NCBI RefSeq assembly: GCF_000025565.1
Contig: NC_014121.1
Location: 2,418,001 to 2,482,000, forward strand
Source of the DNA: Enterobacter cloacae subsp. cloacae ATCC 13047
GTDB taxonomy: Bacteria; Pseudomonadota; Gammaproteobacteria; Enterobacterales; Enterobacteriaceae
DNA length: 64,000 bases
Direction: 5' to 3'
Notes under the pieces: generated by a model
The model's input: the letters and a program-made list of their open reading frames with translations, nothing else
What the model was told of the DNA's origin: nothing
Database searches by the model: none
Part shown: in pieces, positions 7,906 through 14,414 of the stretch
How positions within the stretch are numbered: the stretch's first letter is position 1
How the letters are laid out: each line of letters starts with the position of its first letter
Made by a program: the position numbers and the translations under genes

Positions 7906-8853
7906 TTACTGGTAGGTCAAATTAAGGGTCGCGGAGGCATTTGCCGAGCCGGACTCAACGGATGTTAATGTCTGGAAATAGCGTGCCGTTAACGGAAGCG
8001 TCTCCTGCCCGCCTGCAGACTGTTTTAATAAAAGACGGCTGTTTAACGTCAGCGGCGAGCCGTTATAGAGAAGCTGCACGCCAACGCCTTTTGCGGTGCC
8101 GCTGTTTCCCTGCCCTGTTAATGCCATTACGCTGGTATTCGCACTGTCCGGGTTCTGTATTCCGCTCAGGGAAACCGAAATATTGGTGCCGGCGCTGCAG
8201 TTCAACCCGAGGTTTTGCGTATTCTGCGCAACTGCTGGCGTGGTCCCCACCACTGAGCCAAATGCTGCGGCCGAAATATCACCAATCGGGAACGTCAGCT
8301 GCGGCGTGGTGATGGTGCAGGCCAGCGCGTTGATTGTGCCGCCGGTCAGCTGCACGGTTAACCCGTCACGGTAAATACCGTCGCTGCCCTGCAGCGTCAC
8401 CGCCCCTATGGGGCCTGGCGTTAAGGCGCCGGACGATACCGGGCCAGTCACCACCAACTCGACCCAGCCCCCGTACCAGACCACATACGAGGTCTGCGCA
8501 CTATACGAGAACGTATTGCTCGGGTTCTCAAAATAGGCATTTGATGAAAGCCGAATGCCAATCCCGCTAACGTTGGTGTTGTAAACATGATTGCCGTAGC
8601 TGCTCAGCGCGGCATTGTTGTATCGCATGCTAAAACCCAACATAAGTGGATTGGTACACCCGCTAAGGTAGGTGCCGGTATTACTCGCCGCGCCGGAAAA
8701 AATCACCGTGCCGACAGGCGCATCGCGCTGAACATTGATTGTGCCCACCGACAGTGTAGAAAGCTGAGGCGTAATGGTGGTGCAGGTCCCGGCCCGGGCG
8801 ATATGCCATGCGCAAAGACAGCACAGCAGTAATAACATGTTGATCCGTTTCAT
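7906..8853 (-). CDS. Two-domain fimbrial tip adhesin
   Basis: 315 residues: a signal peptide (MKRINMLLLLCCLCAWHIARA), an N-terminal lectin-like domain of about 150 residues with a Cys pair (GTCTTI and SGCTN), then a pilin domain (about 175-315) with Cys in ALACTITTP and LGLNCSAG and the terminal LNLTYQ strand. This is the FimH-like layout, so it should cap the pilus and bind a receptor, which is unknown. ATG 8853 follows the usher stop by one base, with GGGAGC upstream. A longer frame would start inside the usher gene and is not used. Confidence 0.8.
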   Translation of the reverse strand: MKRINMLLLLCCLCAWHIARAGTCTTITPQLSTLSVGTINVQRDAPVGTVIFSGAASNTGTYLSGCTNPLMLGFSMRYNNAALSSYGNHVYNTNVSGIGIRLSSNAYFENPSNTFSYSAQTSYVVWYGGWVELVVTGPVSSGALTPGPIGAVTLQGSDGIYRDGLTVQLTGGTINALACTITTPQLTFPIGDISAAAFGSVVGTTPAVAQNTQNLGLNCSAGTNISVSLSGIQNPDSANTSVMALTGQGNSGTAKGVGVQLLYNGSPLTLNSRLLLKQSAGGQETLPLTARYFQTLTSVESGSANASATLNLTYQ

Positions 8854-8854
8854 C

Positions 8855-11392
8855 TTAATGCTCCCGGCGACACGAGACGCTGATGTCCGTGATGCCGCCG
8901 TATTGCGCTCCATTAGGCAGGCTAAAATCTGCCCGACACTGCTGGTGAGGTTGATGTCCCCATGTTGCCAGGGCCGTGCCCTGGTCGCGCAGGCCGGTTA
9001 AATAGACCTGGCCGCGATCGCCCACGATAAAGCTGCTCTTGTCATCATCCGCCAGGGTAACAACCGCGCCAAACGGCACGAACTGCTCAGGCGTCGTCAA
9101 CGTCATCAGCACCCGACGTCCTACTTTGGACAAATAATCGGCTTTTACCACCGCGCCGCGCGTAGGCGTGACCGTGCGGGTGTTGATCTCCAGCTCCACA
9201 TCGTCAGGCATATTTTCCGGATCGAGAGTGAGATCGTTTTTGCGGTATACGGAGAGGTTATTCACCACCGTATAGCCCCGGAAATCCGTTCGCACGCCGG
9301 ACTGATTACGAATATTCACGCCGTGCGCGCCCGGGGCTTTGATTAACGCGTTGGTTTCCCCCAGCGGCTGAGACAGCGTCACGCCATCAGCATGCGCGAG
9401 GATCCCCCCCTGCAAACCATAGCTAAGGCGCTCGCTATGTTTGTCGTACCCATAGCCCGCCGTAACTTCCCCGTACGTGCCTTTATAGTCGCCGTTGAGC
9501 GTACCGGTATAGCCCACGCCATCCGTACCGTAACCCTGCTGGATATTCCAGCTCAGGGCGCTATTGTCGAGGGCCACCCCGTTCATGCCGATACTGTGCG
9601 TCGTGCCACTGTTCTTGCTGGCGTTCAGGCCATAGTTAGCCCACGTCTGCGGCAGAAATTTATCCAGCGGTACGCTAACGGTCAGCGCCAGAAGCTGGTC
9701 GTTAGCGTAGGTCTTTGTACTTCCACTGCCGGACGACGGGCTGCCATTTTTGCTGTATGTCCAGCTCACGCCATAGCTGATGTTGTGCCAGTCATTGTTG
9801 TAGCCGACACTCCACGACGCCATGGGTCTGTCAGCGTTCCAGTAATCTTCCCGCGCGGCGCTGAGCGTCAGCGCGCCCCGGTCACCGCCCAGCGTCTGGC
9901 TCATGGTGAGCTCCAGGCGGTTACGCCGTCTGTCCTGAAGTGCGCCGCTGTTCCCCCAGGAGTCCAGCACGTCCTGGAGTCCGTAATAGCCGCGCGTTGA
10001 ATAACGGTACCCCGCAATCGAAAAGTTGGTGCCGGTATTAATTACGTTCTTGCTGTAACGCGCTCGCCAGGACTGCCCCTGCGTTTTTGCAGTATTGGCC
10101 GGCGTTGACCAGGCCTGGGTGACATCGACAGAAAGCGCGCCGAAATCCCCCATGTTTTTACCGGCGCCGACCGCAAGCGACTGATATTTGCTGGCACCCT
10201 GCCCCCCGCCATAGATCGTGATGCCTTTCTGAAGCCCATAAATCGCGGCGATCTGCCCGAACGGGGTTTTCTCCACGCTGCTGTTGTAGGCGCGATACTG
10301 TCCACCGGTGAGGGCATATTTCAGTCGCCCTTCGCGCTGCAATACCGGTACCGAGGCATACGGCAGCGTGAAATGCTGCTCGCTGCCATCGGCCTCTTTG
10401 ATGGTCACGTCTAAATCGCCCGCGCCGCCGGTGGGATACATATCGGTAATTTCAAACGCGCCCGGCGCCACGTAGCTTTGGTAGATCTGATAGCCATTCT
10501 GGCGAATCACCACCTGAGCATTGGTGCGCGCGATCCCGCGGACCACTGGGGCATAGCCTTTCAGGGAATCCGGTAACATGTCATCATCCGATGCCAGCTG
10601 AACCCCGCGAAAAGGCACGCTGTCAAAGACATCCGCCGGGGCGGAACTGTCCCCAAGGGTAAGCTGCGCTTTCAGGGGAATAACGGCACGTTGCAGATAG
10701 CTGTAGACCGTGTCCCATCGATCTTTCCCCGCGCCATCCCGTGACCAGGTGGTGTAGTTGCGTAGACGCCACGGGCCAATATTTATCCCCGGACGCAGGT
10801 TCGCATACTGGCTGTTGCTGCTGGCCCCCTCACCCGCTTTCGCCCGGCTGTTCGCGCCGCTGAGGCTGTAATTGAGCATGGCTGCCGTTATCCCCTCATC
10901 CCACATCTCCGGCGGCACATAGCCTCTTGCCGGCAGATCGATGGCGGCCTGCGGAATACTCAACACCAGACGCTGGGCACCAAACTGGAAATCGGCACTG
11001 GCCTGGGGAATCGCCTGAAGATTGACGCATTCACCGTGTCCTGCACTGAGCGCAGGAAATAATGCCGTTTTCACCCCCCAGCGTTTTAATTGCGCAAGAC
11101 TCAGACAAGGCTGCAATGACGCATCGCCGTTGTCGGCTTTGCTCGCGGTAAACTGAATATCCCCCGTCTCCAGAAACGCGTCGTCGACAATAATATCGAC
11201 ATGGTAGATCCCCGCTGCCTGCGAGCCTGATTCAAAGGCCGACAAATCGGCTTTATCCATGCCTGGATTATCCAGCTCAATTAATTCGGTGTTAAAGGCA
11301 ACACTGGCGTAGAGCGAGGTTGAGGATCCGCCAAACGCTAAGGCGATAAACATCGCCAGGCGTGCGGGTTTCATCGTGTTATTTACCGTCAT
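8855..11392 (-). CDS. Outer membrane fimbrial usher
   Basis: 845 residues, the size of FimD-like ushers. After a signal peptide it shows the N-terminal chaperone-binding domain (FNTELIELDNPGMDKADLSAF), a long 24-strand pore with the plug region, and two C-terminal domains ending in a Cys-containing ISVSC. It receives chaperone-subunit complexes and secretes the pilus. ATG 11374 (MKPARLAMF) is an equally good start six residues in. It is separated from the chaperone by 44 bases that include a perfect 8-bp hairpin (11424-11444). Confidence 0.9.
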   Translation of the reverse strand: MTVNNTMKPARLAMFIALAFGGSSTSLYASVAFNTELIELDNPGMDKADLSAFESGSQAAGIYHVDIIVDDAFLETGDIQFTASKADNGDASLQPCLSLAQLKRWGVKTALFPALSAGHGECVNLQAIPQASADFQFGAQRLVLSIPQAAIDLPARGYVPPEMWDEGITAAMLNYSLSGANSRAKAGEGASSNSQYANLRPGINIGPWRLRNYTTWSRDGAGKDRWDTVYSYLQRAVIPLKAQLTLGDSSAPADVFDSVPFRGVQLASDDDMLPDSLKGYAPVVRGIARTNAQVVIRQNGYQIYQSYVAPGAFEITDMYPTGGAGDLDVTIKEADGSEQHFTLPYASVPVLQREGRLKYALTGGQYRAYNSSVEKTPFGQIAAIYGLQKGITIYGGGQGASKYQSLAVGAGKNMGDFGALSVDVTQAWSTPANTAKTQGQSWRARYSKNVINTGTNFSIAGYRYSTRGYYGLQDVLDSWGNSGALQDRRRNRLELTMSQTLGGDRGALTLSAAREDYWNADRPMASWSVGYNNDWHNISYGVSWTYSKNGSPSSGSGSTKTYANDQLLALTVSVPLDKFLPQTWANYGLNASKNSGTTHSIGMNGVALDNSALSWNIQQGYGTDGVGYTGTLNGDYKGTYGEVTAGYGYDKHSERLSYGLQGGILAHADGVTLSQPLGETNALIKAPGAHGVNIRNQSGVRTDFRGYTVVNNLSVYRKNDLTLDPENMPDDVELEINTRTVTPTRGAVVKADYLSKVGRRVLMTLTTPEQFVPFGAVVTLADDDKSSFIVGDRGQVYLTGLRDQGTALATWGHQPHQQCRADFSLPNGAQYGGITDISVSCRREH

Positions 11393-12171: not shown

Positions 12172-12705
12172 TTAGTTGTAAACCACGGAGAAGTTAGCGA
12201 CAGAATTCGCCGGACCGGCGGTGACAGTCGCTGCGGTGGAAATATACTGAGCGTAGAAACTCAGGGTATTATCCGCGGTGCTGCTCAGCACATAGCTATA
12301 GCTGTTGCTGCCGTGAAGCGGCAGATCCGCCTTATCCGCACTCATCAGGTTGATTGCCACTCCGGTCGCCGCTCCCGCCGCAGACGAATCAATCGCCAGC
12401 AGGCTGGAATTGGTGGCATCTGGCGTACCATCAAAGCGAACCTTCGCGTTGGTCACCGTCACCGGGCAATTTTTCAACACGATATTAAATTGCGTGGCTG
12501 CGGTTCTGGCCCCGGTGGTTGGAAATTCGGTCTTATAATAATCACCTAATACCACCACCTGGTTCTGCGAAGCCACATCAACGTCACAGGCGGAATCCAG
12601 AATATTTCCGTTAAAATTAACGGTACCTGCTGCGGCGAAAGCGTGGGTTGCTGTCAGGGCGGACCCCACTGCCAGCAGGGTTATCATCATTTTATTTTTC
12701 ATCAT
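12172..12705 (-). CDS. Major fimbrial subunit (type 1-like pilin)
   Basis: 177 residues with a signal peptide ending at THAFA|AAG, the pilin Cys pair (DSACDVD and LKNCPVT) and a C-terminal polymerisation strand ANFSVVYN. FimA-like. First gene of the six-gene operon, as expected for the most abundant product. The start at 12705 is preceded by AGGA; an in-frame ATG three bases later and one upstream exist. Expression is probably governed by the 350-base divergent region carrying three identical-type palindromes. Confidence 0.88.
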   Translation of the reverse strand: MMKNKMMITLLAVGSALTATHAFAAAGTVNFNGNILDSACDVDVASQNQVVVLGDYYKTEFPTTGARTAATQFNIVLKNCPVTVTNAKVRFDGTPDATNSSLLAIDSSAAGAATGVAINLMSADKADLPLHGSNSYSYVLSSTADNTLSFYAQYISTAATVTAGPANSVANFSVVYN

Positions 12706-12817
12706 CAAATCCTGTATCACTTTATTTATTACTGAAATCCAGATTACATAATTCGGGCTTCATCAGCCGATGACCGAAATTTATACAACTCTTTTTCGGT
12801 ACACAATCTATTTTGAG

Positions 12818-12831
12818 GTCTAGCTGTAGAC
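12818..12831. promoter_or_regulatory. Palindromic operator 1, GTCTA-N4-TAGAC
   Basis: GTCTAGCTGTAGAC, perfect 5-bp arms with a 4-base spacer, extended on both sides to A-R-GTCTA. It lies upstream of a plausible pilin promoter on the minus strand (-10 TATAAA at 12785-12780, -35 near 12801-12806). Arm and spacer lengths equal those of FNR-family sites (TTGAT-N4-ATCAA). Confidence 0.65.
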
Positions 12832-12891
12832 TTCTCTTTAACAAAATAAATACATTTCAGTTTTGAAATTTCTTAAGCCTTTCTATTTCCA

Positions 12892-12905
12892 GTCTACTTT
12901 TAGAC
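12892..12905. promoter_or_regulatory. Palindromic operator 2, GTCTA-N4-TAGAC
   Basis: GTCTACTTTTAGAC, perfect arms. Centre-to-centre distance from site 1 is 74 bp, close to seven helical turns, so bound proteins could face the same side. Confidence 0.65.
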
Positions 12906-12956
12906 CCCTAATTTACGTCCTTAGAATTCATATAATTAGGCTCGTCATTTACTGCG

Positions 12957-12970
12957 GTCTATTTTTGGAC
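12957..12970. promoter_or_regulatory. Palindromic operator 3, GTCTA-N4-TGGAC
   Basis: GTCTATTTTTGGAC, one mismatch from the other two sites and 65 bp from site 2. It is nearest to the regulator gene starting at 13059 and may serve autoregulation. Confidence 0.6.
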
Positions 12971-13058
12971 CCATCTTAAATATTCCACGACTCGCTGTTT
13001 TTTAAGATAATTCTCTATATCGATCAAATAATGATCGCGTCCGTGAGTGAGGTATCTG

Positions 13059-13718
13059 ATGAACACCCGAATGGCTCCCAGTCTCGATAATGAAAAAGCC
13101 ACCGTGCTTACGGCTAAACCCTATAAGCACATCGAGAAATTAATTGATCATCTTCTTCCATTGGCAGAGAGGCGCATACTGTCCCGGGGGGAAGTGCTCC
13201 ACTATTATGCAAACGACGTGCGTCAGTGTTTTTTATTGCTCCAGGGCAGCGTGGCGTTGCACCGTCGGGGAGATGGCATCGTCTTAAATTCTGAATCCGC
13301 GCCGTTTATTCTTGGCGTGAGTAGCCAGTTCTCCTCAGAGCACCTGTATGTCAGGGCGCTGGAGACCTCCGAACTCGCCGGGGTTTCGCTGGAGCGTTTT
13401 AACGGCGTGATTGCGCAACACAATTTATGGGAGCCGTTTTCGCATCTGCTGATCTATACCGCCTCCCGGGTCTATGAGCACTGCTCGCGGATCTCGCAGA
13501 TGTCGGCCTATGACATCATCCGTTTTCAGCTGGTTGAATTGATGCAGGAGCCCGAAGCAATACGGCTGAACACCACGGCGGCCGCCTATATACAAAGTCG
13601 CACCTGGCTTTCGCGTAGCGGGATAATGCGGATCCTGGCCGAACTGCGCACCGGGAAGTACATTACGATGGAGCGCGGCGTGCTGCTTGATGTCCACCAT
13701 CTGCCGCGGAAATACTGA
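13059..13718 (+). CDS. CRP-like winged-helix regulator (IprA/YaiV type), copy 1
   Basis: 219 residues. The N-terminal part (about 25-110) resembles a cyclic-nucleotide-binding-like beta barrel (CFLLLQGSVALHRRGDG), without a recognisable nucleotide-binding signature. The C-terminal 50 residues form a CRP-type winged helix with LSRSGIMRILAEL as recognition helix (from about residue 184). It resembles the IprA/YaiV family. ATG 13059 is preferred to an upstream GTG (13047) because GAGG is correctly spaced. Divergent from the fimbrial operon across a region with three palindromes, it is the best candidate for binding them. Confidence 0.75.
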   Translation: MNTRMAPSLDNEKATVLTAKPYKHIEKLIDHLLPLAERRILSRGEVLHYYANDVRQCFLLLQGSVALHRRGDGIVLNSESAPFILGVSSQFSSEHLYVRALETSELAGVSLERFNGVIAQHNLWEPFSHLLIYTASRVYEHCSRISQMSAYDIIRFQLVELMQEPEAIRLNTTAAAYIQSRTWLSRSGIMRILAELRTGKYITMERGVLLDVHHLPRKY

Positions 13719-13784: not shown

Positions 13785-14414
13785 ATGTCCTCCACAGAAA
13801 AACCCCATCGTGGTTCTCCCTATGCGCAAGCGCTGATTACGCACTTACAACCTTATTCTACTGTCCGTCATCTCGATCGCGGGGAGCAGCTGGATCTGGT
13901 GGTTGATGGCCGGGGAATGAGTTATTTGATTCTGGAAGGGACCGTTGCCATTTACCGACGCAGCGACAATCTGATGCTGTCGACCGCGAAAAGCCCGGCG
14001 TTATTTGGAGTGGCTAATATTAATGACATCTTTTTTGACGACTACCTGAAAACGGTGACCCCCTGCAAGATTGGAACGCTGACCGCAGAGCAGCTCCACG
14101 TCATTATTCAGGAGAAGGCGCTGTGGGGGTTGATATCAAACCACCTGATGTTTATGTACAACCGGCTCTATAACACCGTCATGCCAAAGGGTGCCCCGAC
14201 GGCCTATGAGATGATCCGCCAGCAGCTGATGTTATTAATGAATGAAGATGAATCTTATCGCCGGGAGATAACCGCAGAACGCTACATTCGCGATAAAACC
14301 CAGCTTTCCCGCAGCGGCGTGATGCGTATCCTGGCCGATCTCAAAACGGGGGGCTTTATTGAAATGGAAGATGGCAGGCTGATTAAAATCAATAAACTTC
14401 CCGCCCGGTACTGA
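13785..14414 (+). CDS. CRP-like winged-helix regulator (IprA/YaiV type), copy 2
   Basis: 209 residues, a paralogue of the preceding gene: same layout, and in the last 36 residues 21 are identical, including the recognition helix LSRSGVMRILADL. N-terminal sensor parts are more diverged, so the two may respond to different signals while reading the same DNA. It follows copy 1 after 66 bases, with no terminator between them, and is closed by a strong terminator. Function in E. coli relatives (IprA) concerns hydrogen peroxide resistance; a fimbrial role here is inferred from position. Confidence 0.75.
   Translation: MSSTEKPHRGSPYAQALITHLQPYSTVRHLDRGEQLDLVVDGRGMSYLILEGTVAIYRRSDNLMLSTAKSPALFGVANINDIFFDDYLKTVTPCKIGTLTAEQLHVIIQEKALWGLISNHLMFMYNRLYNTVMPKGAPTAYEMIRQQLMLLMNEDESYRREITAERYIRDKTQLSRSGVMRILADLKTGGFIEMEDGRLIKINKLPARY

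What the first reader, a model, noticed from the sequence alone, without database searches (positions are those of the whole stretch)
12818..12970. Three copies of a new FNR-geometry palindrome in the fimbrial control region
GTCTA-N4-TAGAC occurs twice perfectly (12818-12831, 12892-12905) and once with a single mismatch (12957-12970) inside 153 bases separating the pilin gene from two CRP-like regulators. Arm length and spacer equal FNR/CRP-class sites but the sequence is different, and sites 1 and 2 lie 74 bp apart, near seven helical turns. I know of no named regulator with this motif. It is likely the recognition site of the IprA/YaiV-type proteins next door.
Basis: partly seen in the sequence, partly recalled or inferred. 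Interest (0 to 1): 0.75.

Follow-up and report, generated by a model that had tools for sequence, protein, structure and literature searches.

The report
Operator sites of a pilus regulator
Three short mirror-image DNA signals between a pilus operon and its neighbouring regulator genes are very probably docking sites for one of those regulators, whose protein family had no DNA target that I could find in print; related bacteria carry a second version of the signal together with a one-residue change in the protein's DNA-reading helix.

Summary
In detail: GTCTA-N4-TAGAC occurs at 12818-12831, 12892-12905 and, with one mismatch, 12957-12970. The two perfect copies are the only ones in the 5.6 Mb genome. 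Of 14 named relatives, the 13 with an intact first regulator gene (A, 13059-13718) keep three sites at nearly fixed spacing while the DNA between them diverges.

Across the family, 43 of 48 distinct A proteins have such a site within 450 bp upstream; shuffles give 0.14. The site lies about 11-12 nt from predicted -35 boxes on both sides, towards pilin and towards A. A is predicted to have the CRP fold and carries an HTH_46 DNA-binding domain.

If the residue aligned with CRP Thr182 is Gly, sites are GTCTA-type (62; no GTGTA palindrome; 2 hybrids). If Ser/Thr, they are GTGTA-N4-TACAC (14 of 14). That switch happened only once in A, so it supports the model without being statistical proof.

Best reading: operators of A, probably activating both divergent promoters. 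Binding was not tested. A and its partner B are distant relatives of IprA, not IprA itself.

The parts
12818..12831 (.). Site 1, perfect palindrome GTCTA-GCTG-TAGAC; pilin-proximal operator
   Evidence: kept in all 13 named relatives with intact A; ends 11 nt from the predicted pilin -35 box
12892..12905 (.). Site 2, perfect palindrome GTCTA-CTTT-TAGAC; middle operator of unknown role
   Evidence: kept with at most one mismatch in the same 13 relatives
12957..12970 (.). Site 3, GTCTA-TTTT-TGGAC, one mismatch; A-proximal operator
   Evidence: a perfect palindrome in 12 of 13 named relatives; ends 12 nt from the predicted -35 box of A
12801..12806 (-). Predicted -35 box of the pilin promoter (TTGTGT)
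   Evidence: Read; offset supported over 43 loci; not tested by experiment
12778..12783 (-). Predicted -10 box of the pilin promoter (TAAATT), spacer 17
   Evidence: Read
12983..12988 (+). Predicted -35 box of the A promoter (TTCCAC)
   Evidence: Read
13006..13011 (+). Predicted -10 box of the A promoter (GATAAT), spacer 17
   Evidence: Read
13059..13718 (+). Regulator A, 219 aa (start chosen by the conserved ATG of the relatives), CRP fold with HTH_46 domain; proposed reader of the sites
13608..13637 (+). Codons of LSRSGIMRIL, the predicted recognition helix of A; Gly188 is the position that differs between clades
   Evidence: Alignment A1, alignment to CRP, comparison with sites
13785..14414 (+). 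Regulator B, 209 aa, HTH_46 paralog of A in tandem
   Evidence: HTH_46 88.1 bits; separate clade from A
12172..12702 (-). Pilin gene, first gene of the divergent chaperone-usher operon
   Evidence: Pfam Fimbrial, 78.1 bits
11437..12120 (-). Pilus chaperone gene (PapD-like)
8855..11392 (-). Outer-membrane usher gene
7906..8850 (-). Fimbrial tip protein with an MrkD-like receptor-binding domain

Best explanation
The three palindromes are operators of regulator A (13059-13718), a protein predicted to have the CRP fold, with an HTH_46 DNA-binding domain. A dimer reads one GTCTA half-site with each recognition helix. Bound about 53 bp upstream of the predicted start points of the two divergent promoters, it most likely activates the pilus operon and its own A-B operon. 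Site 1 serves the pilin promoter, site 3 serves A's promoter, and site 2 is an extra site of unknown role. Shown by computation: conservation of the sites, their linkage to A, the promoter-like geometry and the predicted fold. Inferred: that A is the binder, that it binds as a dimer, that it activates, and that an unknown signal controls it. My confidence that A binds these sites is about 0.85; that it acts mainly as an activator, about 0.6.
For: Sites kept in 13 of 14 named loci; the 14th has a truncated A and no site. 43 of 48 distinct A proteins have a site within 450 bp; dinucleotide shuffles give 0.14 (50 rounds, maximum 1); other HTH_46 genes 4 of 156. In the own genus, 33 genomes with A hold 104 perfect sites and 28 without hold 21. 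15 of 22 perfect GTCTA palindromes in 30 A-bearing genomes lie upstream of an A gene. Recognition-helix residue and half-site base go together: Gly 62 C-type and 0 G-type (2 hybrid), Ser/Thr 14 G-type and 0 C-type; six further Ser-type loci agree. Conserved distance from the site to -35-like boxes on both sides. Where A and the pilin operon are about 2 kb apart (L208), each has its own copy. G140 shows A sites and no B among its matches (19 of 25 candidates scored). Predicted CRP fold and alignment of Arg186 and Arg191 with CRP Arg180 and Arg185.
Against: No binding data. The residue switch occurred once in A (one independent pair). Five of 48 A genes lack a site by the pattern (L042, L060, L065, L204; L066 has a one-base variant), and so do L235, L241, L273 and L274 (near-sites in L241, L273 and L274). 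A GTCTA site before a MASE1-GGDEF-EAL gene is present in three genomes without a detected A (G144, G591, G602), so A may not be the only reader. Seven of 22 perfect sites in A-bearing genomes are not at A genes. About -53 is not a classical activator position of CRP (-41.5 or -61.5; recalled).
Confidence: 0.75

Rival explanations
1. A binds the sites but acts mainly as a repressor, for example by bridging sites 1 to 3 into a DNA loop that silences both divergent promoters.
For: Three sites in one divergent region in most own-genus loci (26 of 29); autoregulation is common for such genes (general knowledge).
Against: The sites lie upstream of the predicted -35 boxes and do not cover the core promoter. 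23 of the 43 loci have a single site within 450 bp, so looping is not needed. Spacing between sites is not helically constant across genera.
Confidence: 0.2
2. A and B bind as a heterodimer, each reading one half-site.
For: B carries the same class of helix residue as A in 36 of 39 loci; the three exceptions, all of one genus (A Gly, B Ser), are the loci with the hybrid operator GTGTA-ATTT-TAGA(C/T). In B the residue class changes four times on the best tree, at least twice on starred branches.
Against: L241 also has A Gly and B Ser but its nearest site is GTCTG-TTTT-TAGAC, not a hybrid. L232 (A Ser, B Ala) keeps GTGTA. Some A loci have no B beside them yet keep palindromes (L044, L046, L057, L064, L206). 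The hybrid-locus A also differs at the residue aligned with CRP Arg185, which may by itself explain an odd site.
Confidence: 0.15
3. Another regulator reads the sites (FNR, CRP, a LuxR-type protein, or another HTH_46 paralog) and A is only a neighbour.
For: LuxR-type genes lie near some of the loci (L052, L208). A GTCTA site persists before a MASE1-GGDEF-EAL gene in genomes without a detected A.
Against: Site and A are strongly linked across genomes, and the site version goes with A's recognition helix. The half-site differs from the CRP and FNR consensus (recalled).
Confidence: 0.1
4. The sites are chance matches or neutral leftovers kept by common descent.
For: Many of the compared loci are close relatives, so their sites are not independent.
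Against: Spacers inside and between the sites diverge while the arms persist, and site 3 is symmetric in 12 of 13 named relatives. Loci whose A is only 49-65% identical keep the GTCTA arms.
Confidence: 0.02

Closest known systems
CRP/FNR superfamily (E. coli CRP, P. aeruginosa Vfr, FNR)
   Same: Predicted fold over most of the length; recognition helix with arginines aligned to CRP Arg180 and Arg185; 5-4-5 palindrome geometry as for FNR (FNR site recalled).
   Different: Half-site GTCTA or GTGTA; Glu181 replaced by Ser; cNMP-binding domain below its cut-off; operator about 11-12 nt upstream of predicted -35 boxes.
IprA/YaiV (NCBIfam NF008810)
   Same: HTH_46 domain and overall protein layout. 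In S. Typhimurium an iprA deletion lowers fim and other fimbrial expression according to a review (PMC6527747, passages, citing Herman et al. 2016, not held).
   Different: A and B score 71.2 and 77.9 bits against a cut-off of 359. IprA-type genes lie beside an autotransporter gene and have no GT[CG]TA palindrome upstream in my set.
Other fimbrial regulators of enteric bacteria (PapB, FimZ, PapX; recalled)
   Same: Regulator genes beside a chaperone-usher operon.
   Different: Other protein families (recalled; a PapB review, PMC12388093, was seen as a search listing only).

Membership tests
HTH_46 (PF15977) | Domain score above the Pfam gathering cut-off (29.3 bits) | tested here: met
   A 87.7 bits, B 88.1 bits
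CRP/FNR superfamily | Overall CRP fold | tested here: met
CRP/FNR superfamily | Recognition helix with equivalents of CRP Arg180, Glu181 and Arg185 | tested here: inconclusive
   Arg180 and Arg185 positions kept (Arg, or Lys in some relatives), Glu181 replaced by Ser
cAMP-responsive CRP | cNMP-binding domain above cut-off, with the phosphate-binding Glu72 and Arg82 (recalled) | tested here: not met
   PF00027 22.9 bits in A, below 27.5, and not listed for B; in the HMM alignment Glu72 falls in a gap and Arg82 pairs with Glu
FNR | Four conserved cysteines for an iron-sulphur cluster (recalled) and TTGAT-N4-ATCAA sites (recalled) | tested here: not met
   Only Cys57 and Cys142 are nearly invariant in 30 A proteins; the site sequence differs
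IprA (NF008810) | Score above the equivalog cut-off of 359 bits | tested here: not met
   71.2 and 77.9 bits
Operator of regulator A | Sites conserved upstream of orthologous A genes more often than chance | tested here: met
   43 of 48 against a shuffle mean of 0.14
Operator of regulator A | Site version changes repeatedly and independently with the recognition helix | tested here: inconclusive
   Perfect association among palindromic sites but only one change in A
Operator of regulator A | Direct binding of the palindrome by the regulator | not testable with these tools
   Needs EMSA or footprinting

The most novel reading that the evidence does not exclude
A family of paired CRP-fold regulators reads its operators with a one-residue code (Gly reads GTCTA, Ser/Thr reads GTGTA, at the position aligned with CRP Thr182) and works as A:B heterodimers, so that mixed pairs use asymmetric hybrid operators such as GTGTA-ATTT-TAGAC with each half facing a fixed direction relative to the promoter.
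Probability: 0.15. Interest if true: 0.8.

Novelty: new variant of a known kind. Interest (0 to 1): 0.6.

Why it matters
HTH_46 proteins are numerous and little studied in enteric bacteria: 5 in this genome, 13 matches in one genome (G250) and 101 of 295 family genomes with a match above the cut-off. The one member for which I found a described phenotype, IprA (passages), has no binding site named in the passages I saw. A concrete operator, with a conserved position relative to promoter-like boxes and a natural second version, makes a family of fimbrial regulators testable by simple binding assays and lets their targets be read from genomes. A switch at a position that contacts the DNA backbone in CRP (Table 1 of PMC12531629, passage) would be an unexpected way for this fold to choose its base.

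Tried and rejected
FNR or CRP site: the half-site differs from the recalled consensus, so this was dropped. IprA proper as binder: rejected by NCBIfam scores. The over-represented GTCAA-N4-TTGAC upstream of IprA-type genes is the inner part of a longer hairpin (GCCCGTC...GACGGGC) after the autotransporter gene, read as a terminator and not as an operator. ATGTC-N7-GACAT upstream of B genes was set aside as probably lying in A's coding end; this was not checked further. GTGTAATTTTACAC in L147 and L162 lies upstream of a TetR-like gene (named from its sequence by eye) and over 400 bp from the HTH_46 gene; taken as unrelated. The GTGTA copy before an EAL gene in L207 sits inside a longer palindrome and was not counted as evidence. 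TTAAG-N6-CTTAA upstream of SRSR-type paralogs was seen and not followed.

Rows dropped before counts: the 48 A and 47 B rows come from a subset of 102 of 204 proteins chosen by a helix pattern that admits only G, S, T or C at the variable place, so other letters were excluded beforehand; identical proteins were collapsed. In one search a site means GT[CG][TC]A-N4-T[AG][CG]AC, so C-type includes GTCCA arms. One search used only A genes that have a site and left out L060 and L204; its pilin-side rows for L054 (the L208 locus), L061 and L062 face B or a LuxR-type gene instead of pilin. In one search locus L266 was misregistered because it starts near a contig end, and L243 is the window itself. 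The three A-less genomes with two or more perfect sites (G627, G638, G639) were not examined. The position list was cut short, so off-locus sites of later genomes were not seen. Pilin neighbours were checked with Pfam in the window and in seven relatives and otherwise read from ORFs.

Literature: no paper in the library holds HTH_46 or PF15977. YaiV is in 13 papers (listing; passages of two of them). GTCTA with TAGAC, 'binding site' and 'regulator' gave two Corynebacterium TetR papers (listing only). Searches gave nothing on this locus (listings only). The main IprA paper (PMC4966445) is not held, so its content is known only through citing passages. Of PMC12531629 I saw the outline, abstract and one passage. 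These searches cover an open-access subset only.

Full report
WHAT IS THERE. Two perfect copies and one copy with a single mismatch lie in the 356-bp gap between the pilin start (12702) and the likely start of the first regulator gene (13059). In the 5.6 Mb genome these are the only perfect copies, and 15 places match with up to one mismatch, three of them here. The left gene is a pilin, followed by chaperone, usher and a tip protein with an MrkD-like receptor-binding domain. The two right-hand genes (here A and B) each carry an HTH_46 domain.

CONSERVATION. A scan of named genomes gave 14 loci from Enterobacter, Lelliottia, Klebsiella michiganensis and K. grimontii. The 13 with an intact A have three sites each with at most one mismatch, 72-73 and 64-65 bp apart (74 and 65 in the window); site 3 is a perfect palindrome in 12 of the 13. 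The intervening DNA is diverged, while the palindromes and two promoter-like blocks stand out. The 14th locus (L023) has only the last 111 residues of A and no site. In the window's own genus, 33 of 61 genomes have a match to A, 34 matches in all, one of them a broken gene. Of 29 loci oriented and scanned (L243-L271, the window included), 26 show three sites, L265 and L269 show two, and L266 was misregistered but has three perfect sites. The other five matches: G366 two sites, G612 two, and none at G631, at the second copy of G615 and at the broken gene of G605.

CO-OCCURRENCE. In those 61 genomes, the 33 with A hold 104 perfect sites and the 28 without hold 21; 31 of 33 against 3 of 28 have two or more (one-sided Mann-Whitney p about 1e-8, not corrected for relatedness). 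In 30 genomes of 19 genera with an A match, 15 of 22 perfect GTCTA palindromes lie upstream of an A gene (one search places compared). The 14-mer GTGTAATTTTACAC has 18 places in the same genomes, 17 of them in an A/B locus (one search compared).

TWO VERSIONS OF THE SITE. A search of 392 family genomes found A homologs in 30. Most upstream regions carry either GTCTA-N4-TAGAC or GTGTA-ATTT-TACAC. I collected 204 distinct HTH_46 proteins. Over-represented 5-4-5 palindromes upstream were GTCTA (22 proteins) and GTGTA (18); a third, GTCAA (8), turned out to be part of a terminator-like hairpin. In a 102-row tree A and B fall into separate clades of 48 and 47 rows. Of the 48 A rows, 43 have a site within 450 bp (dinucleotide shuffles: mean 0.14, maximum 1 in 50 rounds); of the other 156 HTH_46 genes, 4 do. 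By those four are two B genes that share A's site (L061, L062) and two cases beside a TetR-like gene (L147, L162). With Gly at the residue aligned with CRP Thr182, the sites are 62 C-type, 0 G-type and 2 hybrid; with Ser or Thr they are 0 C-type and 14 G-type; one Cys-type A has GTCCA-N4-TGGAC. Six further Ser-type loci all have a GTGTA palindrome, three of them with another spacer. The alignment that pairs Gly188 with Thr182, Ser187 with Glu181, Arg186 with Arg180 and Arg191 with Arg185 is (CRP numbers recalled and as in PMC12531629). In CRP, Arg180, Glu181 and Arg185 contact bases and Thr182 the backbone (Table 1 of PMC12531629, passage).

HOW MUCH THE COVARIATION PROVES. The Ser/Thr proteins form one group in the A tree (one change, support 97/91), so there is one independent contrast and no sign test is possible. 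In B the same residue class changes four times on the best tree, at least twice on starred branches. In 39 loci with both genes the class agrees in 36; the three exceptions are the loci of one genus with the hybrid site (GTGTAATTTTAGAC in L067 and L163, GTGTAATTTTAGAT in L066). In these three a second half-conserved copy (GTGTAATTTTGGAT, or GTGTAATTCTGGAT in L163) faces the pilin, read by eye. This fits both proteins using the same DNA, but L241 (A Gly, B Ser) has GTCTG-TTTT-TAGAC and no hybrid.

PROMOTER GEOMETRY. In 43 A loci I scored consensus -35 and -10 hexamers at every gap from the outermost site. On the pilin side the best offset is gap 11 with spacer 17 (mean 6.28 of 12; mean over all offsets 3.74, sd 0.83). 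On the A side the best are gap 11 with spacer 18 and gap 12 with spacer 17 (6.19 and 5.84; mean 3.70, sd 0.66). These rows are related, so the scores describe rather than test. In 23 of the 43 loci one palindrome stands alone within 450 bp of A, with similar boxes on both sides in many of them. In L208, where A and the pilin operon are about 2 kb apart, each has its own copy. The predicted -35 boxes are poor matches to consensus, the sites lie just upstream of them, and on the pilin side an A-rich stretch lies between. This favours activation, but it is inference. The centre falls near -53 if the -10 hexamer starts at -12.

LIMITS. No binding, expression or start-site data exist here. Several A-like genes lack a site by the pattern: L042, L060, L065, L204 and the variant L066 among the 48, and L235, L241, L273 and L274 outside them (near-sites in L241, L273 and L274). 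A GTCTA site before a MASE1-GGDEF-EAL gene is present in genomes with A (G607, G603, G599) and in genomes without a detected A (G144, G591, G602), and with one mismatch in this genome, so A may not be the only reader of the motif.

VERDICT. The finding is real. It marks the probable operators of a little-studied type of CRP-fold regulator at a pilus locus. The kind (palindromic operators of a CRP-fold protein beside its own gene) is known; the site, its link to this subfamily and the natural second version are new as far as the searches named in Tried and rejected reach.

Noticed in passing
L032:2077-2090 (G000:C3:3811876-3811889); L276, L277, L278, L279, L284, L285: A GTCTA-type palindrome (one mismatch in this genome, perfect in six relatives examined) lies before a MASE1-GGDEF-EAL gene, that is, a likely cyclic-di-GMP enzyme; three of those relatives have no detected A.
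   Followed up: partly
L024:2018-2031 (G000:C3:873017-873030): The same letters as site 3 lie between what look like leuA and leuO (gene names recalled from the sequences).
   Followed up: no
L066, L067, L163: In one genus (3 of 3 genomes held) the pair is A Gly / B Ser and two hybrid-looking operators face outwards, GTGTA on the promoter-distal side in both.
   Followed up: partly
L023 and L275 (G605): An Enterobacter cloacae strain (M-7) has a truncated A and no sites; G605 has a broken A gene, no site at that place, and a contig of the same length, so it may be the same genome.
   Followed up: no
G000:C3:1167275, 4303984, 2860651 (L035-L037): Three further HTH_46 paralogs in this genome, none with a GTCTA-type site (up to one mismatch) in the 8-10 kb fetched around it.
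   Followed up: partly
L007-type (IprA-like) loci: A conserved long hairpin with GTCAAGGATTTGAC at its core lies between an autotransporter gene and the IprA-type gene in several relatives; probably a terminator.
   Followed up: partly
L098, L096, L127, L102, L109, L110: HTH_46 paralogs with SRSR or SKSR helices have TTAAG-N6-CTTAA upstream, possibly another operator of the family.
   Followed up: no
L207:2954-2967: GTGTAATTTTACAC inside a longer palindrome, 63 bp upstream of a gene with an EAL domain, in a genome with a Thr-type A.
   Followed up: no
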